38,275 nt of DNA from NCBI GenBank assembly GCA_036262515.1, contig DATAIT010000105.1, positions 1-38,275 on the forward strand, in the 5' to 3' direction. Of this stretch, positions 1 through 38,150 are shown piece after piece (positions within the stretch are counted from its first letter, which is position 1; the number at the start of each line of letters is the position of its first letter). This DNA comes from Acidimicrobiales bacterium (lineage in GTDB: Bacteria > Actinomycetota > Acidimicrobiia > Acidimicrobiales > GCA-2861595). Below the pieces are notes generated by a model, which saw only the letters and a list, made by a program, of their open reading frames with translations, searched no databases and was not told the origin of the DNA. Made by a program: the position numbers and the translations under genes.

Positions 1-1431
1 TGCGGCCCCTACGACACCCTCGGGTTCGCCGGGTTCTTCGGTGTCCCCGTGCGCTGGCGGCCATTGGGCGCGCCGGAGAGCTCGCCGCGCTGCCCGCCGC
101 TGCTGACCGCCGACCACGAGGTCGCCGAGCAGCCGCTGGTCCCCCAGGACGCCCTCCGCTACCTGAGCGCGCAGCGAGCCGCCGGTGCAGGACACGAGGC
201 CTTCCACGCCTCGAAAGGGAGCCTGGCCGGTCCGTTCGCGCTGGCCGAGGCGGCGGGATACGTCATGGGTCCTGCGGCCGCCGTCAGGACGCTGGCACCG
301 GGCTTGGTGCGAAGCCTGCGGGAACTGGCCACGCGCTGAGCCGCCCGCCTACGGACACGACCGGCGATCGCGGCGGAACAGGACGCCAGCTCCGGCTTCG
401 CGCTCGACGAGCGGGTCACGTTCGCCGAGAACGTCGTCCGGACCATGGGCCTGACGCGCTTCGCGCCGCTCATCGTGCTCTGCGGGCATGGCAGCTTCAA
501 CATCAACAACCCGCATGCATCGTCGTATGACTGCGGCGCGTGCGGCGGCGCCCCCGGAGGTCCGAGCGCCCGAGTGGTCGTGGCCATCCTCAACGACCCT
601 GCGGTCCGTGCCGGCCTCCGAGAGCGGGACGTCGTGGTGCCCGACGACACCCTGTTCGTCGCCGCCCAGCACGACACCGTCTCCGACGTCGTCACCGTGC
701 TCGACCGGGCGGCCGTGCCGGAGTCCCACGAACGGCTGGTGGCGGCCTTCGAGCGAGACGTTGCCGTGGCCGGTGAACGGCTTGCCGTCGAGCGCGCCGG
801 GCGGCTGCCGGGAGAGCCCGCGAAGGTCCGGGTCCGTGGGCACGACTGGGCGCAGGTGCGTCCCGAGTGGGGGCTGGCCAGCAATGCGGCGTTCGTCGTC
901 GGGCCTCGCTCGATAACCGCCGGACTCGACTTGGCATGCCGCGTGTTCCTGCACTCCTACGACGCCGAGAGCGACGGAGACGGCAGCGCCCTGGAGACGA
1001 TCATGACCGCACCACTCGTCGTCGCCCAGTGGATCTCGGCTCAGTACTACTTCTCGGCTGTCGACCCCGACCAGTTCGGCGCGGGAGACAAGACGCTGCA
1101 CAACCCGGTGGGTGGCATCGGCGTCGTCCTCGGCGAGGGGGGCGACCTCCAGGTCGGTCTCCCCGCGCAGGCGGTGGGTGTCGGGCACCGCCGCATGCAC
1201 CAGTCGCTGCGCCTGCTGGCGGTCATCCAGGCGCCCCTCGAGCGCATCGAGGCCATCATCCAGCGCAACCAGGTGCTCCAGGAGCTATTCCGCGGGAAGT
1301 GGCTGACCCTGGCCGCCCGTGCGAACGGCGACGAGCCCTGGTCCATGCGCAGCCCGGGCGGCGCGTGGGAGCCGTGGCGTCCTGCCGACGACGGCGTCGA
1401 TCACACCAAGGCGTCGCTCGAAGTGCAATGA
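1..1431 (+). pseudogene. dabA: DabA-type inorganic carbon transporter subunit, 3' part, interrupted by in-frame TGA
   Basis: Frame 1 is open from the window edge, so the 5' part lies outside. The C-terminal part shows the DabA (DUF2309/UPF0753) signature: GHGS at about 485-496, NNPHAS, then DCGACGG at about 529-549. In characterised DabA the His of GHGS and the first Cys of CGACGG are two of four zinc ligands of the beta-carbonic-anhydrase-like site; the other two would be upstream of the window. The family is the cytoplasmic partner of the NuoL-like membrane protein DabB in energy-coupled CO2/bicarbonate uptake; dabB is not visible here. A TGA at 337-339 interrupts the frame, yet recognisable family sequence (EQ...FAENVVRTMGLTRFAPLIV) resumes in the same frame directly after it, so this is a point nonsense change and not a frameshift. 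An ATG at 445 could restart a 328-aa fragment. Confident on family; less sure whether the stop is biological or an assembly error. Confidence 0.85.
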
Positions 1432-20877: not shown

Positions 20878-23800
20878 GTGAAGGGATGGAAGGGCGTGGG
20901 GGACGCCAAGGGCAACACCGGTCGCAGGCTGGCGAGTCGGTGGGTCGACCTCCGCCTCCGCACCAAGGGTCTGGTCGTCGTGGCGATCCCCGTCACCGCC
21001 CTTCTCCTGGTCGGCGGGGTCTTTCTCGCCCTCCAGGTCCAGGCGCAGTCGAACCGGGAGCGCGTGGACGAGAGCTTCGCCATCCGCCGCCAGATCGCCG
21101 CGGTCACGACCGACCTCATCAACGCCGAGAGCGGCGCGCGCGGGTTCGCCATCACCCGCCAGGACGAGTTCCTGGAGCCCTACCGGGCCGCCCGTGCCAA
21201 CGTGGGCCGGGATCTGGCGCGCCTGGAGGCGCTGGTGGCCGGGTTCACGCCCCAGGAGGGGCGGGCCAGGCGGGTCCAGACGCTGGCGGCCGCCGAGTTC
21301 GCCGCGCTGAAGCCGCTGGTGGCGGGCGCTGAGGTCTCCGGACCGGCGCTGGCCGACCTGCTGCGCCGCAGCAAGGAGCCCATGGACGCCGTGCGGGCCG
21401 AGCTGGCCCGGATGGACGGCACGGCCGGCGCCCGGCTGTCGGCGAGGCTGCGGCGGGAGGATCGCTTCACCACGGTGCTGAGCTGGGTCATGAGCGGTGT
21501 CGTGGCCGTCGGCCTTGGCGGCGGCTTCATCGCCGCCAGCCTGTTCGCGACGGGTGTGGCCCGGCGTGTGGAGCAGCTGGAGCGATCGGCCCAGGATCTC
21601 GAGCAGGAGCGGCCTCTCGACGACCTGCCGGCCGGGGACGACGAGGTCGGCCGGCTGGGCGTCGCCCTCGGCAGCGCCAGCGCCCTCCTCGCCGAGCGGG
21701 CCAGCAGCATCCGAGAGGGTCGCGCCTTTCTTGACCACGTGGTCACGGCCAGCCCGGTCGTGGTCGTCCAGTCGGGGGTCGAGGACCCGATCATCACCTA
21801 TGTCAGTGCCAACGTGGAGGAGATCCTCGGCTACCGGCCCGACGAGATCGTCGGCCAGCGGAGCTTCTTCTCGGAGCGGTCTCATCCCGACGACCGCGCC
21901 GCCCTGCTCGATGCGGCTCGCGAGGCTCGCCCGGAGCACGAGTTCCGGGTCAGGAGCGCCGGCGGCGACCACCGGTGGATGCGCGCCGTGAGCCACATCG
22001 AGCAGCACCGTGACGGCGCACCCGAGACGAGGCTCACCTACCTCACCGACGTCACGCCGGCCAGGCAGATCGGGGAGGCGCTGGCGGCCGCCCACGAGGA
22101 GGCGCTGACCGCGTCACGGCTCAAGTCGGAGTTCGTGGCGAACATGAGCCACGAGATCCGCACGCCCCTCAACGGCGTCATCGGCATGACCGGTCTGTTG
22201 CTCGACACCGAGATGACCCCTGAGCAGCGCCAGTACGCCGAGATGGCTCGGGCGTCCGGTGAGGCGTTGCTCACGGTGATCAACGACATCCTCGACTTCT
22301 CCAAGATCGAGGCCGGCCGCATGGATCTCGAGGAGCTCGATTTCGACCTGCGCAGCGTCATCGAAGGGGCGGCCGAGCTGGTGGCCGAGCAGGCTCATGG
22401 CAAAGAGCTCGAGCTGGCCGTTCTGGTTCGGCCCGATGTCCCGGTCGACGTGCGCGGGGACCCCGGGCGGGTGCGCCAGATCCTGATCAACCTGATCGGC
22501 AACGCCGTGAAGTTCACCGACCAAGGGGAAGTGGTGGTGCGGGTCGGGATCGACGACGCAGACCCGGCGCTCGTGCGCTTCGAGGTCTGCGACACCGGGA
22601 TTGGGATCGGGCCCGACGAGCAGGCTCGACTCTTCCAGAGCTTCTCCCAGGCCGACTCGTCGACCACGCGGAAGTACGGCGGGACCGGTCTTGGGCTCGC
22701 CATCTGCCGGCAGCTGGTCGAGCTCATGGGCGGTCGCATCGGCGTCGACAGCCTGCCGGGAAAGGGATCGACCTTCTGGTTCACGGCTCGCCTCGGACCG
22801 GCGTCTGAGCCGGTCGCCGGCCTCCAGGCCGACGCCCCGGGTCTGGACGGCCTGGCCGTGCTGGTGGTCGACGACAACGCCACGAACCGGATGATCCTCG
22901 AGCAGACACTTCTGGCGTGGAACCTGCGCCCGGAGATGGCCGAGGGTGGTGAGCCGGCGCTGGCGATGCTGCGGGCGGCCAGTGCCCGCTCGCAGCCCTT
23001 CGACCTGTCGATCCTCGACTACCACATGCCCGGGATGGATGGCCTCGAGCTGGCCAGGGCGATACGGGAGGACCCCGCGCTGTCGGCCACCAAGCTCGTG
23101 CTGCTCACCTCGTCCGGGCGCTGGAGCCACGCCCAGACCGCCCAGGGCTCCGACATCGACGCCTTCCTGACCAAGCCGATCCGCCAGTCGGCGCTCTACG
23201 ACGCCCTCGTGACCCTCACCGGCCTCCCCGCGGCCGCCCGCAGCGACATCGTCACCGCAGCGACCGTGGCCGACGTCCGGGGCAAGGCGCGCCCCCACGT
23301 CCTGGTGGTCGAGGACAACGCCGTCAACCAGATGGTCGCCGCCGGCATGCTCGAGCGGCTGGGCTACCGGGTCGACGTCGCCGCCGACGGGCGCGAGGCC
23401 GTGGAGGCGCTCGAGCGGGTGCCCTACGCCGCCGTGCTGATGGACTGCCAGATGCCGGACATGGACGGCTACGAGGCCACCGCCGAGATCCGCCGGCGTC
23501 AGGCCGGAGGCCCGCGGACGCCGATCATCGCCATGACGGCGGGGGCCATGCGCGGCGACGAGGAGCGGGCGCTCGACGCCGGTATGGACGAGTTCGTGAC
23601 GAAACCGGTGAAGCTGGCCGAGCTCAGCGCCGTCCTCGCCCGCTGGATCGAGGTGACGGGGGGTCGGGCCCCGGTCCCTGGCCCCGCGGCCGGATCACGG
23701 TCGGTCCTCGACCAGGAGATTCTGGCCGGGCTGCACGATCTCGAGCGCGGCGGCCGCCCGGGCGCCGTGGACGAGCTGGTGCGCCTCTTCCTGTCCACCG

Positions 23801-24057
23801 CCCGGGAGCGGTCCGCCGAGCTGCGTGAGGCCGTCGATGCCGACGACCTGCGGGCGGCGGGACGACTGGCCCACAGCCTCCGAGGGAGCAGCGGCAACCT
23901 GGCCGCCACCGCCATGGCGGGCATCGCCGGCCAACTGGAGGTGTCGGCCAACGCCGACGACGGCACAGGCGCGGCCAGGGCCCTGGGCCGCCTCGAGGCC
24001 GAGCTCGAGCGGGTGGATGCCGCCCTCCGGGCCGAGTTCCCCGGAGCGTCGGAATGA
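20878..24057 (+). CDS. Hybrid sensor histidine kinase (CHASE3-PAS-HisKA-HATPase-REC-REC-HPt)
   Basis: The start is GTG 20878; a GTG 18 nt later is possible. The 1059-aa order is: TM1 (about 31-53), CHASE3-like extracytoplasmic helical domain (about 60-195, with NAESGARGFAITRQDEFLEPY), TM2 (about 200-228), HAMP-like linker, PAS (about 285-395, ILGYRPDEIVGQ), HisKA with H425 (NMSHEIRTPLNG), HATPase_c (about 525-640, DTGIGIG, GTGLGLAI), REC1 with D714 (SILDYHMPGMDG), REC2 with D856 (LMDCQMPDMDG) and HPt with H999 (LAHSLRGSSGNLAA). A complete internal His-Asp-His relay is thus visible. The HPt could pass phosphate to a separate regulator; the OmpR-type gene tail-to-tail with it is a candidate. 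Confidence 0.95.
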   Translation: MKGWKGVGDAKGNTGRRLASRWVDLRLRTKGLVVVAIPVTALLLVGGVFLALQVQAQSNRERVDESFAIRRQIAAVTTDLINAESGARGFAITRQDEFLEPYRAARANVGRDLARLEALVAGFTPQEGRARRVQTLAAAEFAALKPLVAGAEVSGPALADLLRRSKEPMDAVRAELARMDGTAGARLSARLRREDRFTTVLSWVMSGVVAVGLGGGFIAASLFATGVARRVEQLERSAQDLEQERPLDDLPAGDDEVGRLGVALGSASALLAERASSIREGRAFLDHVVTASPVVVVQSGVEDPIITYVSANVEEILGYRPDEIVGQRSFFSERSHPDDRAALLDAAREARPEHEFRVRSAGGDHRWMRAVSHIEQHRDGAPETRLTYLTDVTPARQIGEALAAAHEEALTASRLKSEFVANMSHEIRTPLNGVIGMTGLLLDTEMTPEQRQYAEMARASGEALLTVINDILDFSKIEAGRMDLEELDFDLRSVIEGAAELVAEQAHGKELELAVLVRPDVPVDVRGDPGRVRQILINLIGNAVKFTDQGEVVVRVGIDDADPALVRFEVCDTGIGIGPDEQARLFQSFSQADSSTTRKYGGTGLGLAICRQLVELMGGRIGVDSLPGKGSTFWFTARLGPASEPVAGLQADAPGLDGLAVLVVDDNATNRMILEQTLLAWNLRPEMAEGGEPALAMLRAASARSQPFDLSILDYHMPGMDGLELARAIREDPALSATKLVLLTSSGRWSHAQTAQGSDIDAFLTKPIRQSALYDALVTLTGLPAAARSDIVTAATVADVRGKARPHVLVVEDNAVNQMVAAGMLERLGYRVDVAADGREAVEALERVPYAAVLMDCQMPDMDGYEATAEIRRRQAGGPRTPIIAMTAGAMRGDEERALDAGMDEFVTKPVKLAELSAVLARWIEVTGGRAPVPGPAAGSRSVLDQEILAGLHDLERGGRPGAVDELVRLFLSTARERSAELREAVDADDLRAAGRLAHSLRGSSGNLAATAMAGIAGQLEVSANADDGTGAARALGRLEAELERVDAALRAEFPGASE

Positions 24058-24103
24058 CGCCACCGGACCCCGACGTCGAGGCTCGGCAGTGTCGCAGCCG
24101 CCG

Positions 24104-24880
24104 TCAGGCGCCGACGGCCCGCCCCTGGTCCGCCTGGGCGTCGCCGGTGGAGTTGAAGCGGTAGCCGATGCCGCGGGCCGTCTGGATCCAGCCGGGGTTC
24201 TCCGGGTCGATCTCTATCTTGCGGCGGAGGCGGCGCACGTGTTCGGTGACGGTGGCGGGGTCCTGCCAGCCTGGCGCCGAGCCCCACACCTGGGCGAGCA
24301 GATCGGCACGCGAGAACACCCGGCACGGAGCCGCCGCCAAGCAGGCGAGGAGGTCGAACTCCTTCGGCGTGAGCTCCACGGACATGCCCGACACGAGCAC
24401 CCGGCGCTCCTCGGCGCGCAGCTCGAGGGTGCGGGCCGGCATGGGGCCGACGTCGGGGACGGCGGCGCCACCGGTTGCGCCGACGGCGCCGGCGGTACCG
24501 CACCGGCGGAGCACCGACGCGGCCCGGGCGCCCAATTCGGCGGGGGCGAACGGCTTGACAACGTAGTCGTCGGCGCCCATCTCCAGGCCGAGCACCCGGT
24601 CGGACTCGTCGTCGAGGCTCGTCACGAGGATCACCGGTACCGCGGAGTCCTGGCGCAGGCGGGTCAGCACCGCCAGCCCGCTCATGCGAGGCAGGTTCAC
24701 GTCGAGGAGGACGAGGTCCACGTTCCCGGCCCACACCATCGCCACCGCCGTCTCGCCGTCCTCGGCTTCTGCGACGTCGAACCCGCGACGCTCGAGTGCC
24801 ACCCGCGCCAGCAGCCGGACGTCGGCCACGTCGTCCACGACGAGCACCCGGGCGGTCGGACGGCTGGGATGTCGTTCCAC
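24104..24880 (-). CDS. OmpR/PhoB-family response regulator
   Basis: GTG 24880 is preferred: GAGGAG lies about 10 nt upstream and the receiver begins ten residues later (ARVLVVDDVADV). The 258-aa product has an N-terminal receiver with phospho-acceptor Asp in LVLLDVNLPRMSG, the Lys in YVVKPFAPAEL, a Gly/Ala-rich linker, and a C-terminal winged helix (LTPKEFDLLACLAAAPCRVFSRADLLAQVWG, then VTEHVRRLRRKIE and GIGYRF). It may be the output of the neighbouring hybrid kinase (46 nt between stop codons) but could be an orphan. The CAP-domain gene ends 85 nt upstream on the same strand. Confidence 0.92.
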   Translation of the reverse strand: MERHPSRPTARVLVVDDVADVRLLARVALERRGFDVAEAEDGETAVAMVWAGNVDLVLLDVNLPRMSGLAVLTRLRQDSAVPVILVTSLDDESDRVLGLEMGADDYVVKPFAPAELGARAASVLRRCGTAGAVGATGGAAVPDVGPMPARTLELRAEERRVLVSGMSVELTPKEFDLLACLAAAPCRVFSRADLLAQVWGSAPGWQDPATVTEHVRRLRRKIEIDPENPGWIQTARGIGYRFNSTGDAQADQGRAVGA

Positions 24881-24965
24881 GCTCGCTTCGCTCCTCACGC
24901 CGCCCGTGCGGCTCTTGGGTAGCTTCGGCGGGTTTCGGGGGAAACCGTAGCGATCGTTCCCACGC

Positions 24966-25658
24966 TCAGCGGGAAGCGGCCCGGCGCGGACGCCGCGATG
25001 CCGGGCGGCGGGCCGGAGCCCGTCGCGGCGCCTTGGCCTTCGGGGCGACCCGGCTGTCGACGAAGTCCTCCGTGATGAACACGGCACCGCTGCCGTCGCG
25101 GACGACGGCGATCCCCACGGCATCGAAGCGGCCGTTCAGGATGTTCGCCCGGTGGCCGGGGCTGGCCATCAGCCGGAGGTGTGCGACCTCGACCGAGCCG
25201 TTCACCGCCACGTTCTCGCCGAGGGCCCGGGCGGCCAGAGCGGCGTGGATCGCCGGCTTGAAGTACGCATCGTTGTGCCAGATGTCTCCCCGCTCGGCCA
25301 TGGCCTGGCTCTGGCGGGCGGCGATGGCGACGATGGCGGGGCGGGACTCGAGGGCTCCGAGCCCGGCTCTCGCTCGCTCCTGGTTCACCAACGTGAGCAG
25401 CGTGGCGGCGGCGTCGGGAACGTCACCGGCACCGACGGCCTCCGCCGGCTGCGCGGCGGTGGCGGGCGCCGGATCCGTAGCGGGTGCGGTGGGGGAGGCC
25501 GGCTCGGCCGGGGGTGCGACCGGAGCGGTCACCGCCGGGGCCGGCGGTGGCGAACAGAGGAGGTTCAGCAGGCCGCAGCTGGCCGCGAACGCAGGGGTGA
25601 CGGTGAGAAGGGACAGCGAGGCCGTGATGGCGGCGGCGGAGGCGAGGCGCTTGAGCAT
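24966..25658 (-). CDS. Secreted CAP-domain (SCP/YkwD-like) protein
   Basis: ATG 25658 places a clean Sec signal peptide at the N-terminus (basic start, LASAAAITASLSLLTVTPAFA, cleavage after AFA); a GTG at 25682 would add eight residues. After cleavage come two Cys (CGLLNLLC), a Pro/Ala/Thr linker of about 50 residues, and the CAP domain from about residue 85 with LVNQERARAGL, GENVA and PGHRANILNGRFDAVGIAV. The His and Glu of the CAP site are recognisable (WHND, GENV). The C-terminus is a strongly basic Arg/Lys/Ala/Pro tail that could bind wall polymers or DNA. Bacterial YkwD-like proteins are exported, and their function is poorly defined. Confidence 0.9.
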   Translation of the reverse strand: MLKRLASAAAITASLSLLTVTPAFAASCGLLNLLCSPPPAPAVTAPVAPPAEPASPTAPATDPAPATAAQPAEAVGAGDVPDAAATLLTLVNQERARAGLGALESRPAIVAIAARQSQAMAERGDIWHNDAYFKPAIHAALAARALGENVAVNGSVEVAHLRLMASPGHRANILNGRFDAVGIAVVRDGSGAVFITEDFVDSRVAPKAKAPRRAPARRPASRRPRRAASR

Positions 25659-32537: not shown

Positions 32538-34187
32538 CTACGAGTCCGGCGTCGCAGCCCCTCGGTCGATCACCTCGAGCACCGCCGTCTCGGCCCCGGG
32601 GTCGAACACGGCGCGGACGGTGTCGCCCAGCTCGGCACCCGCTCGGCGCAGGAATCCGGTCCACCCCCAGGAGTTGCCATGGGTGTCGACCCCCAGGGTG
32701 GTCATCTGCGTGCCGTCGGCGTCGAGGCACGGGAAGTGTCGGCCCTCGAGCGACGGGCGCAGCTCGGCGGGCACGTGCACGACGCCGTTGGCCCACACGC
32801 TCGGCGTCACGCGCCAGGAGAGCCATGGCTGGCCCTCCGGGGTCCAGCCGTGCACAGGGCCCTCGTCGCTGCGGGTGGGCCGGCGCCTGGCCGCCGTGTG
32901 GTCCTCGGGCCCGACCACGGTGCCCCGGGGGGCGAAGAGCCCGGGTCCGACGCGCTCCAGGCACTCGGAGTACGTCGTGTAGAGGTTCACCGAGGTGAGG
33001 TTGAGGCCCGCACCGTGGCAGGCGTCGAGGAGGTGGGCCCGGGCCAGGACGCCGCCGGGCGAGGCCCGGAGGATCTCGACCATCCGCTGGTTGAGCGGGC
33101 CCACGACGGCGGGATCGATCGGGTCGACCGCCGACACGTCGGTGCCCTCGACCCGGAAACAGGGATGGCACGCGTAGATGCGTGTGAGCACCGACACGGG
33201 TGGGGGAGGCGGCAGCCGGCGGAACGAGTTGTGCCGGCGCAGCCCGTCGTGCAGCGACTCCACCGACAGCGACGGGGTGACCGCCAGCATGCGCATGGAC
33301 GCCCGCACGAACGGGCCGGACGACCTGGCGTCGCGGAAGGTGAACCACCCGTCCTGGAGGCACTCCAGCGATCTGCAGGTCTCGAGGACCACGCGCAGCT
33401 GCCGCCTGGTGACCTCGACGCCGTCGCCCTCGACGAGCTCGCGCTCGAGCCGCTCGAGGGTGCTGGCGCCGCAGCGCTCGGCCTGGCGACGGGCTCGCGC
33501 CTCGATGGCGGGTGCATGGGCCACCGCGGCCGACGCCAGCCTGGGCAGGAGCACGGTCGTCCGCCCGGCGCCGGAGAAGACGAACGGAAGCTCGCGCCCG
33601 AACAGCTCGGCGGCGCAGCGCAGGCTCTCGGCGCAGAACGCGCCCACCGTGAGGCGCGCCTCGAGGAGCAGGCGCGGCACCTGCGACGCCGGCAGGGGAA
33701 CCGCCTTGGCCACCGCGTCGATGGCGGCGTCGAGCTGCGGCAAGCTGACGGGCCCGTTCGTCTCCTGCTGCTTGCGCAGCCGCGACTCGAGCTGACGGAC
33801 CCGTTCGCCGCTGAGCCCTGCCACCCGTCCCGAGTCGGCCAGGGTGAGCGGCGGCCGGCCGGCGAGGCCCAGCCGGTCGATCACGGCCTGGAGGCGCCTG
33901 TGCTTCAACCGGTTGTGACCCAGGCCCGCCACGTGTGCGGCCAAGGCGTCCTCGAGCAGGGGTGGCCGGACGGCGGGCCGGCGTGGCGAGCGGGCCCGCC
34001 TTTGGTCGGCGGGGGCGAGGGAGCCGTGGGCGGTGGCGCCGTCGTCGAGGAGCAGCGGGGTGCGACGGCTCACCTCAGGCGCCAGCGAGCCGTGGCCGGC
34101 CGAGGCGTCGCCCAGGAGCAGCGCGGTCGTCGCGGACCGCGCCGAGGCGTCGGTCTGCGGGGACGTCGTCGTCGAGACTGGGCTCAT
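32538..34187 (-). CDS. Putative DNA-binding protein with sigma-70 region 4-like HTH and C-terminal barrel-like domain
   Basis: ATG 34187 has GGAGGA about 8 nt upstream; 549 aa. Residues 21-85 contain three related segments of the pattern LLxDxxAxHgSLAP (about 23-37, 45-59 and a weaker one at 77-86). At about 113-140, LTLADSGRVAGLSGERVRQLESRLRK matches the sigma-70 region 4 recognition helix (ERVRQLE). A long helical middle follows. Around 365-420 there is a winged-helix-like segment (GGVLARAHLLDACHGAGL ... TTYSECLERVGPGLFAPRG). The last 110 residues (VHVPAELRPSLEGRHFPCL, GWTGFLRRAGAELGDTVRAVFDP) suggest a small beta-barrel of B3/AbrB style; this is a weak fold guess. No core sigma region 2 is present, so it is unlikely to be a sigma factor. 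Confidence 0.75.
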   Translation of the reverse strand: MSPVSTTTSPQTDASARSATTALLLGDASAGHGSLAPEVSRRTPLLLDDGATAHGSLAPADQRRARSPRRPAVRPPLLEDALAAHVAGLGHNRLKHRRLQAVIDRLGLAGRPPLTLADSGRVAGLSGERVRQLESRLRKQQETNGPVSLPQLDAAIDAVAKAVPLPASQVPRLLLEARLTVGAFCAESLRCAAELFGRELPFVFSGAGRTTVLLPRLASAAVAHAPAIEARARRQAERCGASTLERLERELVEGDGVEVTRRQLRVVLETCRSLECLQDGWFTFRDARSSGPFVRASMRMLAVTPSLSVESLHDGLRRHNSFRRLPPPPPVSVLTRIYACHPCFRVEGTDVSAVDPIDPAVVGPLNQRMVEILRASPGGVLARAHLLDACHGAGLNLTSVNLYTTYSECLERVGPGLFAPRGTVVGPEDHTAARRRPTRSDEGPVHGWTPEGQPWLSWRVTPSVWANGVVHVPAELRPSLEGRHFPCLDADGTQMTTLGVDTHGNSWGWTGFLRRAGAELGDTVRAVFDPGAETAVLEVIDRGAATPDS

Positions 34188-34290: not shown

Positions 34291-34331
34291 GGGGGTGCCA
34301 GCACCCCCCTCGGCCGCGGCGTCCCTAGACT
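34291..34331 (+). promoter_or_regulatory. Palindromic operator plus -10 of the NarL-type regulator gene
   Basis: GGGGGTGCCAGCACCCCC (34291-34308) is a perfect 18-bp palindrome. TAGACT at 34326-34331 is a good -10, with a start near 34338, so the palindrome centre lies near -38, where an activator or repressor would meet the -35 region. A GGGGGGAG ribosome binding site at 34341-34348 precedes the ATG 34356. Confidence 0.5.
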
Positions 34332-34355: not shown

Positions 34356-35051
34356 ATGTCGTCAGACCGACCGCAGACGGTGAGGGTCCTCATCGCCGAC
34401 GACGAGTATCTCGTGCGCGAGGGTGCCCGCAGCGTCCTGTCGTCGGTGGCCGGGATCGAGGTGCTGGGCGTCGCCGGCGACCCGAGCGAGCTCCACGCCG
34501 CCATCGAAGGGAGCCCTCCCGACGTGGTGGTGCTCGACATCCGGATGCCGCCGACGTACCAGACCGAGGGCATCGACGCCGCCCGGCTCATCCGCACGAC
34601 GCATCCGGACGTCGGCGTGGTGATCCTTTCGCAGTACGCCGACCCCGAATACGCCCTGGAACTGCTCCGCGACGGGTCCAAGGGCCTGGCCTACCTGTTG
34701 AAGGAACGGCTGGGAGAGCCCACCAAGCTGGCCGCCGCCATACGCGAGGTCGCCCGTGGTGGCTCCGTTCTCGACCCGAAGGTGGTCGACGGGCTCATCG
34801 AGGCCCAGCACCGGCGCGCCCGGTCGCGCCTGCATGGGCTCACCACCCGCGAAGGGGAGGTGCTCGAGATGATGGCCACCGGGCGGACCAACGCCGCCAT
34901 CGGCGAGGCCCTGTTCCTGAGCGAGCGGGCGGTGGAGAAGCACATCAACTCGATCTTCCGCAAGCTCGGGCTCAGCGAGGAGCTCGACATCAACCACCGT
35001 GTGGCGGCCGTCCTGTTCTTCCTCCAGCGCAACATGGGCACGCCGGACTGA
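34356..35051 (+). CDS. NarL/LuxR-family response regulator
   Basis: ATG 34356, 231 aa. The receiver has DDE at the acidic pocket (VLIADDEYLVREG), phospho-acceptor Asp in VVVLDIRMPP, and the Lys in YLLKERL. The LuxR output domain (about 160-225) reads LTTREGEVLEMMATGRTNAAIGEALFLSERAVEKHINSIFRKLGL. It ends 4 nt from the stop of the convergent histidine kinase gene, which is its probable partner. It is unlike the DosR-type regulator at 8851 in its recognition helix, so it should bind another site; the palindrome over its own promoter is one candidate. Confidence 0.92.
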   Translation: MSSDRPQTVRVLIADDEYLVREGARSVLSSVAGIEVLGVAGDPSELHAAIEGSPPDVVVLDIRMPPTYQTEGIDAARLIRTTHPDVGVVILSQYADPEYALELLRDGSKGLAYLLKERLGEPTKLAAAIREVARGGSVLDPKVVDGLIEAQHRRARSRLHGLTTREGEVLEMMATGRTNAAIGEALFLSERAVEKHINSIFRKLGLSEELDINHRVAAVLFFLQRNMGTPD

Positions 35052-35055
35052 GGGC

Positions 35056-36840
35056 TCAGGGCATCGGAGGACCGCCGACCTCCATGGCGGCACGCACTGG
35101 GAAGCTGGCCCGCACCCGCGTGCCCAGCCCGGGAGCGCTGTCGATGGTCAGGTGCCCGCCGAACGATCGGGTCCGGTCGTCCATGTGGAGCAGGCCGCCG
35201 TTGCGCACCTGCGAGTCGGCGGCGAAACCGCGGCCGTCGTCGCCGATCTCCACGACCAGCCAGTCGTCCGTGACCTCCAGGCGCACGGTGATCTCGGTGG
35301 CGTCCGCGTGCTTCAGCACGTTGGCGAGGGCCTCGCTCACCAGGAAGTAGGCACCACTCTCGATCTCGGCCGGTACACGAGGAAGCGGGTCGGGCACGCA
35401 GACCAGTCGGGCGGACAGCGGCAGGCGACCGAGCGTGCTCCGCAATGCGGCGGCCAGGCCGCGATCGACGAGGATCGACGGGTAGAGGTCGTGGCTCACC
35501 TCACGGAGTCGCTCGATGACGGCATCGAGCTCCGCGCTCAGCTCGGCCAGCGAGCCGTGGATGGCGCCCGGCGACCGCTCGGCCGCCTCGGTCGCCAGGC
35601 CGAAGCCCATGCGGAGGACGACCAGATGCTGCTGGATGCCGTCGTGAAGGTCGCGGGCCAGGCGGTGGCGCTCCTCGTCCTGGGCGGCCACGATGCGCTG
35701 CGAGCTGTCCTGGAGGACGGCCGCCTGGCGGGCGATCAGGTCCAGCTGGTCGCGGAGCTCGAGGCGCATCTGCTCGAGGGTCTGGGCCAGCACGGCCACT
35801 TCGTCGCTCCCGGTGGTGGCGAAGGAGGCCTCCAGGTCGCCTCCCGCGATGCGACGGGCCGTCGACGTGAGCCGTTCCAGAGGGCGTACGAGGACGCGGA
35901 AGCACAGCCACCCCACGACCAGGGCGATGGCGGCGAGCAGGGCGGCGGCGACGAGGCGGGTCCGCTCCAGAGACCGGTCGAGCGGTGCCTCGGGATCGGC
36001 CAGGGACACGCCGAGGGCGCCGACGACCCCGCCACCGGACCCGCTCACGGTGCGGTAGACCACCAGCGTCTCGACGCCGCGGAAGGGGACCACGACGGGC
36101 TCGGTCGGCAGCGGGCCACCGGGCGCCCCCACGGTGGGCGGCGAGGTGAGCGGATCGACGAACGTGGAGCCGACCACCTTTCCGTTGGCCACCAGCATCA
36201 CGTGGCCGACGTCGCCGAGCTGGCGACGAAGCCGGTACGCGAAGCCGTCACCGAACTTGTACCCGCCGACGAGCACGGGAGCGTCGGCACCGGTCCCGAT
36301 GGGCACCGTCACTGCCTGGATCCAGTGGCCGTCGGCTGCCGCCAGGAGACGACTGACCGGTGTCCGCCGGTCGTCGGGCGTGATGGCCGGGGGCCCTTGG
36401 AGGACGTCGCCGACGTGTGCCTCCTCGGCCAGCGGGCGTCCGTTGGGCTGCTCCACCTCGACCACGTCGAGCTCGAGGTTCCGGTACACGCCTCCCAGCT
36501 CGCCCACCAGCTCGTTGTGGTGGTCAGGATCGATCAGCCGGTTGGCGGTGAGCGACTGGCTGAGGTTGCGCAGCGCCCCCACCAGGGTGCGCTCACGTTC
36601 GGCGTACGCCTGGGCCAGCACCCGCAGGTTGCTGACCGCGACCCGGCGCGCCTGCTCGTGCAGCGCCGAGCGGGTGAGTCTGCCCTCGAGGAAACCGGTG
36701 AGGGCGCTCGAGCCCACCAACGCCACGACGAGGGCAGCGAGGATCTTCAACAGGAGCGACGAGCGCAGCCGGGCGACGGGATCGCGGCGCCGAGCCGGGT
36801 TGCGCGCTCCGTCCCGGCGCCGGCCCGTCGGGGTGGTCAC
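35056..36840 (-). CDS. Membrane sensor histidine kinase coupled to a solute-binding protein
   Basis: GTG 36840 overlaps the preceding stop (GTGA), giving 594 aa. A basic N-terminus leads to TM1 (about 27-50), an extracytoplasmic sensor region of about 230 residues with Cache-like features (LSQSLTANRLIDPDHH, VTVPIGTGADAPVLVGGYKFGD, VLVGG strands), TM2 (about 290-312), HAMP (RPLERLTSTARRIAGGDLE), and a HisKA_3 helix with H399 (RLARDLHDGIQQHL), then HATPase_c with EALANVLKHA and GDDGRGF. This is the NarX/DesK-type kinase layout. Its coupling to the binding protein suggests ligand-loaded lipoprotein is sensed by the outer domain. The regulator at 34356 is the likely phosphate acceptor. Confidence 0.92.
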   Translation of the reverse strand: MTTPTGRRRDGARNPARRRDPVARLRSSLLLKILAALVVALVGSSALTGFLEGRLTRSALHEQARRVAVSNLRVLAQAYAERERTLVGALRNLSQSLTANRLIDPDHHNELVGELGGVYRNLELDVVEVEQPNGRPLAEEAHVGDVLQGPPAITPDDRRTPVSRLLAAADGHWIQAVTVPIGTGADAPVLVGGYKFGDGFAYRLRRQLGDVGHVMLVANGKVVGSTFVDPLTSPPTVGAPGGPLPTEPVVVPFRGVETLVVYRTVSGSGGGVVGALGVSLADPEAPLDRSLERTRLVAAALLAAIALVVGWLCFRVLVRPLERLTSTARRIAGGDLEASFATTGSDEVAVLAQTLEQMRLELRDQLDLIARQAAVLQDSSQRIVAAQDEERHRLARDLHDGIQQHLVVLRMGFGLATEAAERSPGAIHGSLAELSAELDAVIERLREVSHDLYPSILVDRGLAAALRSTLGRLPLSARLVCVPDPLPRVPAEIESGAYFLVSEALANVLKHADATEITVRLEVTDDWLVVEIGDDGRGFAADSQVRNGGLLHMDDRTRSFGGHLTIDSAPGLGTRVRASFPVRAAMEVGGPPMP

Positions 36841-38150
36841 GGGCTTGCGGGGATCAGCGCCTGAGCCCGCTGTTGGGCCTCCGCCATCACGGTGGCGGCG
36901 TCGGCGCCCCTGCGCAACACCTGGTCGACGGCGTCGGCGAATATGTCGTGCGCCTCGGGGAACGCGCTCAGCTTGAACGGGCTGGCGGTGGGCAGCTGGT
37001 CGATCACGGCCTTGAGGTCCGGCGTGGCGAAGAAGGGGTCGTCGTAGACCCGCGGCCGCACGGGAAGACGGCCCTCCTCCTTCGCGAGGCGCAGGGCGTA
37101 CTTGTCGGACACCAGGTGGGCCATGAACTCGAACGCCAGCTTCTCCTGGTGGGAGGCCTTGGGGACGAACATGCTGCTGCCCCCCATCACCGACCCCTTG
37201 CTGGCGGAGGTGCCCGACGGCATGAGCGTGGAGCGGTACTTGGCCCCGGCCTCGTCCTTCTTCAGGATGGCGAGATCCCACGAACCGCTGGCCAGGGCCG
37301 AGGCACTGCCCGAGCGGAACAGCGCGAGCGCATCGCCGCTGTGGGAGTCGGCGGCCCGGGGTGGGAACGCCAGGTTCTCGCGCACGAGGCGGCCGAGGTA
37401 TGCCAGCGCGCCGACCACCTTGGGGTCGTCGAAGGTGAGTTGCACCTTCCCGTCGCTGCCCACCTTGATGACCTCGCCACCGTTGGCCTTGATCCATCCG
37501 TACGTCCACCAGGTGCTCGTGGGCATGGCCAGGGCCCGGTGCGAGCCGTCGGGGGTGCTCAGGGCGCGGGCGGCCACCTCGAAGGTGTCGAAGGTGAACG
37601 GGCCTTCCGGCGGGGTGACGTTGGCCGCCTTGAACTGATCGCCGTCGAAGAGCAGGAAGAGCGCGTTGGTGTCGAGTGGGACCCCGTAGAGGTGGCCGGC
37701 CCACGTGACGTCGTCGATGGCCCCGGGCAGGAACTCGTGGGTGTCGAGCGGCTGGCCTTTGGCCCACAGGTCGTCGAGCGGCTTGGCCAGGCCCTGGGCG
37801 GCGGCGGAGAAGGCGTGGGCCTGCACGACGTCGGGGGAGACGCCGCTCTTGATGGCGGCGGTCACCGTGTCGATCATGTGGCTGATCGGGGCCCGGTCCA
37901 CGTCGACGCGGACATCGGGGTGGCTCCGCTCGAAGTCGCGGACGGCCGACACGAAGGGATCGGTCACCCAGTCGTCGGTCATGAGGACACGGAGGATCGT
38001 GGGCTGGTCGGGCGTGGCGTCGCCGCCACTGCCGCACGCCGCCGCCACGACGCCGAGGACGAGGCAGCAGGCGACGACCGACGGCAGGCCGCGATGGTGA
38101 CGCCGGGACCGCCTGGCGTCGCTTCGGCGGCCCGAGCTCTCAGTTCCCAT
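36837..38150 (-). CDS. Extracellular solute-binding lipoprotein (family 1, sugar-type)
   Basis: ATG 38150 lies 7 nt after a GAGGGGG site; 437 aa. A basic twin-Arg-rich start, hydrophobic core and lipobox VVAAAC with Cys about 39 mark a lipoprotein. The mature part follows the family 1 fold of ABC sugar-binding proteins: LRVLMTDDWVTDPFVSAVRDFERSHPDVRV, PDVVQAHAFSAAAQGLAKPLDDL, YGVPLDTNALFLLFD, GGSSMFVPKASHQEKLAFEFMAHLVSD. No permease or ATPase gene is visible before the window end. Its stop codon overlaps the kinase start, so it is probably a sensory receptor and not (only) a transporter component. Confidence 0.92.
   Translation of the reverse strand: MGTESSGRRSDARRSRRHHRGLPSVVACCLVLGVVAAACGSGGDATPDQPTILRVLMTDDWVTDPFVSAVRDFERSHPDVRVDVDRAPISHMIDTVTAAIKSGVSPDVVQAHAFSAAAQGLAKPLDDLWAKGQPLDTHEFLPGAIDDVTWAGHLYGVPLDTNALFLLFDGDQFKAANVTPPEGPFTFDTFEVAARALSTPDGSHRALAMPTSTWWTYGWIKANGGEVIKVGSDGKVQLTFDDPKVVGALAYLGRLVRENLAFPPRAADSHSGDALALFRSGSASALASGSWDLAILKKDEAGAKYRSTLMPSGTSASKGSVMGGSSMFVPKASHQEKLAFEFMAHLVSDKYALRLAKEEGRLPVRPRVYDDPFFATPDLKAVIDQLPTASPFKLSAFPEAHDIFADAVDQVLRRGADAATVMAEAQQRAQALIPASP

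What the first reader, a model, noticed from the sequence alone, without database searches (positions are those of the whole stretch)
36837..38150. Solute-binding lipoprotein translationally coupled to a sensor kinase, no transporter
A family 1 sugar-type binding protein overlaps a NarX-type kinase by 4 nt (GTGA), and the kinase is tail-to-tail with a NarL-type regulator (4-nt gap). No permease or ATPase is in view. This looks like a three-component system in which the binding protein acts as ligand receptor for the kinase. Few actinobacterial examples are described, to my knowledge. Permease genes could lie past the right edge, but the binding protein is the first gene of its transcript, so they would not be in this operon.
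Basis: partly seen in the sequence, partly recalled or inferred. Interest (0 to 1): 0.72.

Follow-up and report, generated by a model that had tools for sequence, protein, structure and literature searches.

The report
Receptor lipoprotein wired to sensor kinase
A sugar-type binding lipoprotein on the cell surface is encoded, in 34 of 34 related gene sets, directly in front of a sensor kinase and almost never near a transporter, so these bacteria most likely use it as the ligand receptor that switches the kinase and its partner regulator, although contact between the proteins and the ligand itself remain untested.

Summary
In detail: a family-1 binding lipoprotein (36837-38150, -) overlaps a HisKA_3 kinase (35056-36840, -) by GTGA, and a NarL-type regulator (34356-35051, +) converges on the kinase with a 4-nt gap. 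The right edge is an assembly end 125 nt from the lipoprotein's ATG. Starting from the kinase or, separately, from the binding protein, 34 distinct loci in several lineages of Actinomycetota were found. The kinase follows the binding protein in all 34, and the regulator is convergent in all 31 that reach it. Permeases lie within 1.5 kb in 1 of 32 loci against 16 of 25 ordinary family-1 homologues; one genus does carry a Pot-like transporter upstream. The kinase's outer domain models as a tandem CACHE, like LuxQ. It is poorly conserved (32% mean identity), whereas the binding protein is well conserved (48%, 53 near-invariant positions), which places specificity in the binding protein. New here: an 18-bp palindrome (window 34291-34308) in the regulator's promoter region at 20 of 29 loci, a candidate operator. 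Protein contact, ligand and regulon are untested. A new, transporter-poor variant of a known kind, not a new principle.

The parts
36837..38150 (-). Family-1 (SBP_bac_1) solute-binding lipoprotein, 437 aa; proposed ligand receptor
   Evidence: Pfam PF01547 4.6e-31; AlphaFold model pLDDT 87.3, Z 36-40 to UgpB, MalE, CbpB and other sugar-binding proteins
38034..38036 (-). Codon of Cys39, predicted lipidation site
   Evidence: Cys39 invariant in 19 of 19 homologues, after a hydrophobic signal segment
36837..36840 (-). GTGA overlap of the binding-protein stop and the kinase start (translational coupling)
   Evidence: sequence; binding protein and kinase abut or overlap at all loci, exactly -4 in 15 of 32
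35056..36840 (-). Membrane sensor histidine kinase, 594 aa (HAMP, HisKA_3, HATPase_c)
   Evidence: catalytic part models like DesK, VraS and DosS
35971..36693 (-). Outer (extracytoplasmic) domain of the kinase, residues ~50-290, tandem-CACHE fold
   Evidence: VIA-align Z 13.5-14.0 to PctA, DctB, LuxQ and other tandem CACHE domains, model residues ~52-291; no Pfam match; only one near-invariant column
34356..35051 (+). NarL-type response regulator (receiver + GerE HTH), convergent with the kinase
   Evidence: convergent in 31 of 31 loci whose contig reaches it
34291..34308 (.). 18-bp palindrome GGGGGTGCCAGCACCCCC, candidate operator of the regulator
   Evidence: equivalent of GGTGGTGCTAGCACCACC upstream of the regulator at 20 of 29 loci; only match of the degenerate pattern in the genome
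34326..34331 (+). TAGACT, -10-like element of the regulator's promoter
   Evidence: TASNCT or TAGAAT downstream of the palindrome at 13 of 23 sites, shuffle mean 0.37
32538..34187 (-). Gene divergent from the regulator across the palindrome (sigma-70 region 4-like HTH suspected); possible co-target, membership uncertain
   Evidence: 62% identical homologue in the same place in L113; similar divergent ORF in G001; no Pfam match of its own

Best explanation
This is a dedicated ligand-receptor / two-component cassette. The lipoprotein is anchored at the outer face of the membrane, closes on a small solute, probably a carbohydrate or a glycerol-phosphate-type compound, and in its closed (or open) form docks on the tandem-CACHE outer domain of the kinase dimer. 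Through HAMP this changes the balance of autophosphorylation and phosphatase activity at the HisKA_3 histidine. The kinase phosphorylates the convergently encoded NarL-type regulator, which binds the palindrome in its own promoter region and so controls itself and perhaps the divergent neighbour. Shown by computation: the parts, the 1:1 gene association, the coupling of the two genes, the conserved lipid anchor, the folds, the conserved palindrome. Inferred: docking, ligand class, direction of the signal, and that the regulator is what binds the palindrome.
For: Association: kinases whose sensor part matched always have the binding protein directly upstream where the contig allows, while 60 kinases matching mainly in the catalytic part have none in their loci. 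The independent binding-protein search gave the same cassette 15 of 15 times, 34 of 34 in all. Separation from transport: permease within 1.5 kb in 1 of 32 against 16 of 25 controls (Fisher 4.8e-7). Cys39 invariant. Near-invariant positions are many in the binding protein (53) and only one in the kinase's outer domain. Outer-domain fold as in LuxQ, the partner of LuxP. Palindrome and -10-like element. Precedent with a family-1 lipoprotein: CuaDSR, where the SBP binds the sensor and the sensor alone does not bind cellobiose (PMC10384115).
Against: No complex could be modelled and no ligand is known. Gene proximity can mislead: SBPs encoded near AgtS and AruS did not activate those kinases (PMC11113362). 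Two genomes of one genus have an ABC transporter immediately upstream, so transport is not wholly absent from the family's context. Low conservation of the kinase's outer domain could also reflect the usual drift of sensor domains. The palindrome consensus was derived from the same loci, several of which are close relatives, and it is absent from the f123 loci.
Confidence: 0.72

Rival explanations
1. Dual role: the binding protein feeds a sugar-type ABC transporter encoded elsewhere and also informs the kinase.
For: The genome has 26 permease domains on other contigs; two relatives have a transporter upstream; SBPs with both roles are described as widespread (PMC9602780).
Against: The clade is separated from permease genes (1 of 32 against 16 of 25). 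The transporter next to L149 and L208 is Pot-like with its own binding protein and is absent from the sister L148.
Confidence: 0.16
2. The kinase senses its own ligand through the tandem CACHE, and the lipoprotein is an accessory inhibitor or a co-expressed target.
For: Many tandem-CACHE domains bind small molecules directly (fold matches include PctA, Tlp3 and DctB).
Against: One near-invariant column in the outer domain against 53 in the binding protein; such a target would not be expected to track the kinase 1:1 over this divergence.
Confidence: 0.09
3. An ordinary transport binding protein that happens to lie in front of a kinase, with no functional link.
For: The fold is that of ordinary family-1 transport binding proteins.
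Against: 34 of 34 conserved order with overlapping or abutting genes, and no member without the kinase.
Confidence: 0.03

Closest known systems
CuaDSR of Ruminiclostridium cellulolyticum (PMC10384115)
   Same: Family-1 SBP lipoprotein gene adjacent to kinase and regulator genes; SBP binds the sensor's outer part; kinase with two TM helices and HAMP
   Different: Class-I kinase and YesN/AraC-type regulator in one co-directional operon beside its target transporter; here HisKA_3 kinase, NarL-type convergent regulator, usually no transporter
LuxP-LuxQ of Vibrio
   Same: Binding protein as receptor for a kinase whose outer domain is a tandem PAS/CACHE fold (receptor role from general knowledge)
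   Different: LuxP is a soluble periplasmic protein of another SBP family and LuxQ is a hybrid kinase (general knowledge)
XylFII-LytS (cited in PMC10384115 and PMC11113362)
   Same: Sugar-binding SBP forming a complex with a kinase outer domain in Gram-positive bacteria
   Different: LytS-type kinase and a different SBP family (general knowledge)
GlnH-GlnX-PknG of mycobacteria (PMC6069109)
   Same: Actinobacterial SBP lipoprotein proposed as a receptor rather than for transport
   Different: Amino-acid SBP acting through a membrane protein on a Ser/Thr kinase; the interaction is proposed there
HbpS-SenS-SenR of Streptomyces (PMC4991794)
   Same: Actinobacterial three-component system: extracellular protein, membrane kinase, response regulator
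   Different: HbpS is a secreted redox-sensing protein, not an SBP

Membership tests
SBP_bac_1 (family-1 solute-binding protein) | Match above the Pfam cut-off over the domain | tested here: met
   PF01547 109.4 bits against 26, residues 63-351
SBP_bac_1 (family-1 solute-binding protein) | Two-lobed fold of this group | tested here: met
   Model pLDDT 87.3; Z 36-40 over ~370 residues to UgpB, MalE, CbpB
SBP_bac_1 (family-1 solute-binding protein) | Partner ABC permeases encoded nearby, as usual for transport members | tested here: not met
   None on the contig; 1 of 32 clade loci within 1.5 kb against 16 of 25 controls. Membership rests on sequence and fold; this concerns the transport role only
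NarL-type (HisKA_3 / GerE) two-component system | HisKA_3 + HATPase_c kinase and receiver + GerE regulator | tested here: met
NarX nitrate sensor | Equivalog-level match | tested here: not met
   89.7 bits against the cut-off of 578
SBP-dependent three-component system | SBP gene stably linked to kinase and regulator genes | tested here: met
   34 of 34 with the kinase, 31 of 31 with the regulator
SBP-dependent three-component system | Kinase has an extracytoplasmic domain between two TM segments | tested here: met
   Tandem-CACHE model, residues ~52-290, flanked by helices continuous with membrane segments; TM assignment read from sequence and model
SBP-dependent three-component system | SBP binds the kinase's outer domain | not testable with these tools
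   No complex prediction available
SBP-dependent three-component system | Ligand acts through the SBP on kinase output | not testable with these tools
   Needs binding and reporter assays
LuxPQ | Receptor SBP of the Peripla_BP_4 type | tested here: not met
   P0002 matches SBP_bac_1 and SBP_bac_8 only; the genome's PF13407 matches lie on another contig

The most novel reading that the evidence does not exclude
A family of surface receptors in several actinobacterial lineages in which a sugar-type binding protein has left transport altogether and works only as the input of a NarL-type kinase, with one conserved ligand and a self-regulating palindromic promoter, and controls lineage-specific neighbours such as lipid-modifying or molybdenum-enzyme genes.
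Probability: 0.4. Interest if true: 0.65.

Novelty: new variant of a known kind. Interest (0 to 1): 0.5.

Why it matters
SBP-driven kinases are known mostly from Proteobacteria and Firmicutes (general knowledge), and where a transporter shares the binding protein or the locus it is hard to separate sensing from uptake. A conserved, nearly transporter-free set in Actinomycetota, with a lipoprotein that can be tested on its own, a defined outer domain and a predicted operator, would let the receptor function be measured directly and could assign a ligand to an uncharacterised signalling family.

Tried and rejected
Sugar-SBP family PF13407 as an alternative: its matches lie on another contig. Natural SBP-kinase fusions: none among the loci; always two genes. 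Known sensor Pfam on the outer domain: none in 19 members even at E 0.5. Canonical sigma-70 promoters: none found near the cassette. Palindrome as intrinsic terminator: T-run absent downstream at 21 of 22 sites (L113 has TTTTT), and the site lies between divergent starts where both starts are visible. Known RNA family: none. Palindrome upstream of the binding-protein gene: not found except a weak 13/18 match in L115. Genome-wide regulon from the strict pattern: about one other site per genome, at the level of the reversed-pattern control; in two g223 genomes a second site is at the same gene (L194, L195), not shared with the third. The first permease screen was insensitive and was replaced. 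The review of SBP signalling PMC8050422 was not held. Ligand from neighbours: neighbours change between lineages, so no ligand was assigned.

Full report
WHAT IS THERE. The lipoprotein gene occupies 38150-36837 on the minus strand, the kinase 36840-35056 on the minus strand and the regulator 34356-35051 on the plus strand. The GTGA overlap and the 4-nt gap between the convergent stops are exact. Domain content is SBP_bac_1; HAMP, HisKA_3 and HATPase_c; Response_reg and GerE. NCBIfam gives no equivalog for any of them; the best are far below cut-off, including NarX. The window is one complete contig, so the right edge is an assembly break 125 nt upstream of the lipoprotein's ATG, and nothing can be read there. 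In a genome of the same genus (L003, called G001 in the genome set) 4.7 kb upstream are visible and hold a SpoIIE-type phosphatase gene ending close before the lipoprotein; in the family relative G003 (L113) a GlgX/isoamylase-like gene lies upstream on the other strand. Neither has a permease.

CONSERVATION, BOTH DIRECTIONS. A scan of 84,980 species genomes with the kinase gave 78 loci. In L003 to L020 the sensor part matched. All of these except L008, whose contig starts inside the kinase gene, have the binding protein directly upstream (37-75% identity), and the regulator is convergent where the contig continues. The other 60 loci, matching mainly in the catalytic region, contain no such binding protein. 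An independent search with the binding-protein profile across the phylum returned 15 genomes besides the window's own, and 15 of 15 have the same three genes in the same order; three of these 15 loci are the same contigs as L011, L017 and L020. For the same-genus genome the two contigs appear to break at the kinase/regulator junction, and its regulator is 90% identical. The spacing of lipoprotein and kinase is -4 in 15 of 32, and between -38 and +13 in the rest apart from L148 and L149, where the kinase start is ambiguous. Distribution is patchy: 3 of 395 genomes of the window's own class, 22 of 66 in the class of G489 (which includes the Nitriliruptoraceae loci), 4 of 8 in the order of G594.

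NOT A TRANSPORT CONTEXT. Using 26 permease domains of the window's own genome as queries, permeases were found near the cassette only in L149 among the 32 loci, and later in L208 of the same genus. Within 1.5 kb the count is 1 of 32 for the clade against 16 of 25 for more distant family-1 homologues from relatives (Fisher p 4.8e-7; the loci are not fully independent). The L149/L208 transporter has Pot-like permeases and ATPase and its own binding protein, and is absent from the third member of that genus (L148). It is the exception to remember, because it would fit a dual or linked transport role.

WHERE THE SPECIFICITY SITS. Across 28 complete cassettes the mean pairwise identity is 48% for the binding protein, 32% for the kinase's outer domain, 49% for its catalytic part and 66% for the regulator. 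The binding protein has 53 positions at 95% conservation or more; the kinase's residues 50-290 have one. Distances between the three genes correlate (r 0.64 to 0.85 for the binding protein against the others; no permutation reached them), which is expected of co-inherited neighbours and is weak evidence by itself. The lipidated Cys39 is invariant.

FOLDS. The binding-protein model (pLDDT 87) matches UgpB, MalE, CbpB and the beta-1,2-glucan binding protein at Z 36-40, close to each other, so the ligand class is only 'carbohydrate or glycerol-phosphate-like'. The kinase model (pLDDT 80, pTM 0.47) has an outer domain matching tandem-CACHE domains at Z 13.5-14.0 over about 185-220 residues, among them DctB, PctA and LuxQ; LuxQ is the textbook partner of a binding protein. 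No Pfam sensor family matches it.

A CANDIDATE OPERATOR. Upstream of the regulator an 18-bp palindrome close to GGTGGTGCTAGCACCACC scores at least 15 of 18 at 20 of 29 loci, against 3 of 9000 Markov-resampled sequences. The window's version is GGGGGTGCCAGCACCCCC at 34291-34308; L113 has the same sequence, and L205 of the same genus a slightly broken copy in the same place. A -10-like TASNCT (or TAGAAT) follows at 13 of 23 sites, shuffle mean 0.37. In the window's genome this is the only exact match to the degenerate pattern; in the other genomes tested extra sites are at background level. The most economical reading is that the regulator controls its own promoter region, perhaps with the divergent gene; that the regulator is the binder is inference. 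The f123 loci, with more divergent regulators (48-50% identity), lack it. Caveats: the consensus was derived from these loci, and several are close relatives.

NEIGHBOURS. In many Nitriliruptoraceae loci a sulfite-oxidase-like molybdopterin enzyme gene lies 12-81 nt upstream of and co-directional with the lipoprotein, and across the regulator's divergent side lie an FAD-dependent amine-oxidase-like gene and cyclopropane-fatty-acid-synthase-like genes (homology grouping, Pfam checked in L135 and L143 only). In Acidimicrobiia relatives the neighbours differ. These are possible targets, not established ones.

HOW IT MOST LIKELY WORKS AND HOW SURE. Ligand-loaded (or empty) lipoprotein docking on the tandem-CACHE dimer to set the kinase/phosphatase balance is the best-supported reading (0.72). 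It works like CuaDSR, XylFII-LytS and LuxPQ; in CuaDSR the SBP binds the sensor and the sensor alone does not bind the sugar (PMC10384115). It is not a member of LuxPQ or NarX by the features tested. A caution from the literature: SBPs encoded near AgtS and AruS failed to activate those kinases, although 10 of 11 characterised pairs were gene neighbours (PMC11113362). In Actinobacteria, GlnH-GlnX-PknG (PMC6069109) and HbpS-SenS-SenR (PMC4991794) are related ideas with different parts. I found no paper on this family in the held library, which is not proof that none exists.

VERDICT. Observation confirmed; interpretation supported by conservation, not by biochemistry. New variant of a known kind; interest 0.5.

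Noticed in passing
L010:6031-7914 with L010:7750-8427, and most other Nitriliruptoraceae loci: The kinase reading frame runs 150-219 nt into the convergent regulator gene on the opposite strand. In GC-rich DNA this can be just an absence of stops, but it would make a convergent gene overlap.
   Followed up: partly
L115:5287-6416: Two small genes lie between regulator and kinase, one looking like an XRE-type repressor and one like a nucleotidyltransferase-type toxin partner (by eye only): an apparent insertion of a toxin-antitoxin-like pair.
   Followed up: no
L004 and L005 (one genome); L114 and L115 (G033): Two genomes carry two copies of the whole cassette.
   Followed up: no
about 20-50 nt upstream of the palindrome, e.g. 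L013, L015, L143: Further conserved blocks, GGAACCGTG and CACCGCTCTT in the direction of the regulator, precede the palindrome in Nitriliruptoraceae loci.
   Followed up: partly
L194:3926 and L195:4124: In two genomes of genus g223 a second strict palindrome lies at the same gene junction, a possible second target of the regulator or an unrelated element.
   Followed up: partly
L149:10220-16380 and L208:10372-16442: A Pot-like ABC transporter operon with its own binding protein and a DUF5995/cNMP-binding protein gene lies upstream of the cassette in two of three genomes of one genus.
   Followed up: yes
window 445-1431: C-terminal part of a DabA-type inorganic carbon transporter subunit.
   Followed up: no
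window 20878-25123: A CHASE3/PAS hybrid kinase with two receivers and an Hpt domain, next to a convergent OmpR-type regulator.
   Followed up: no
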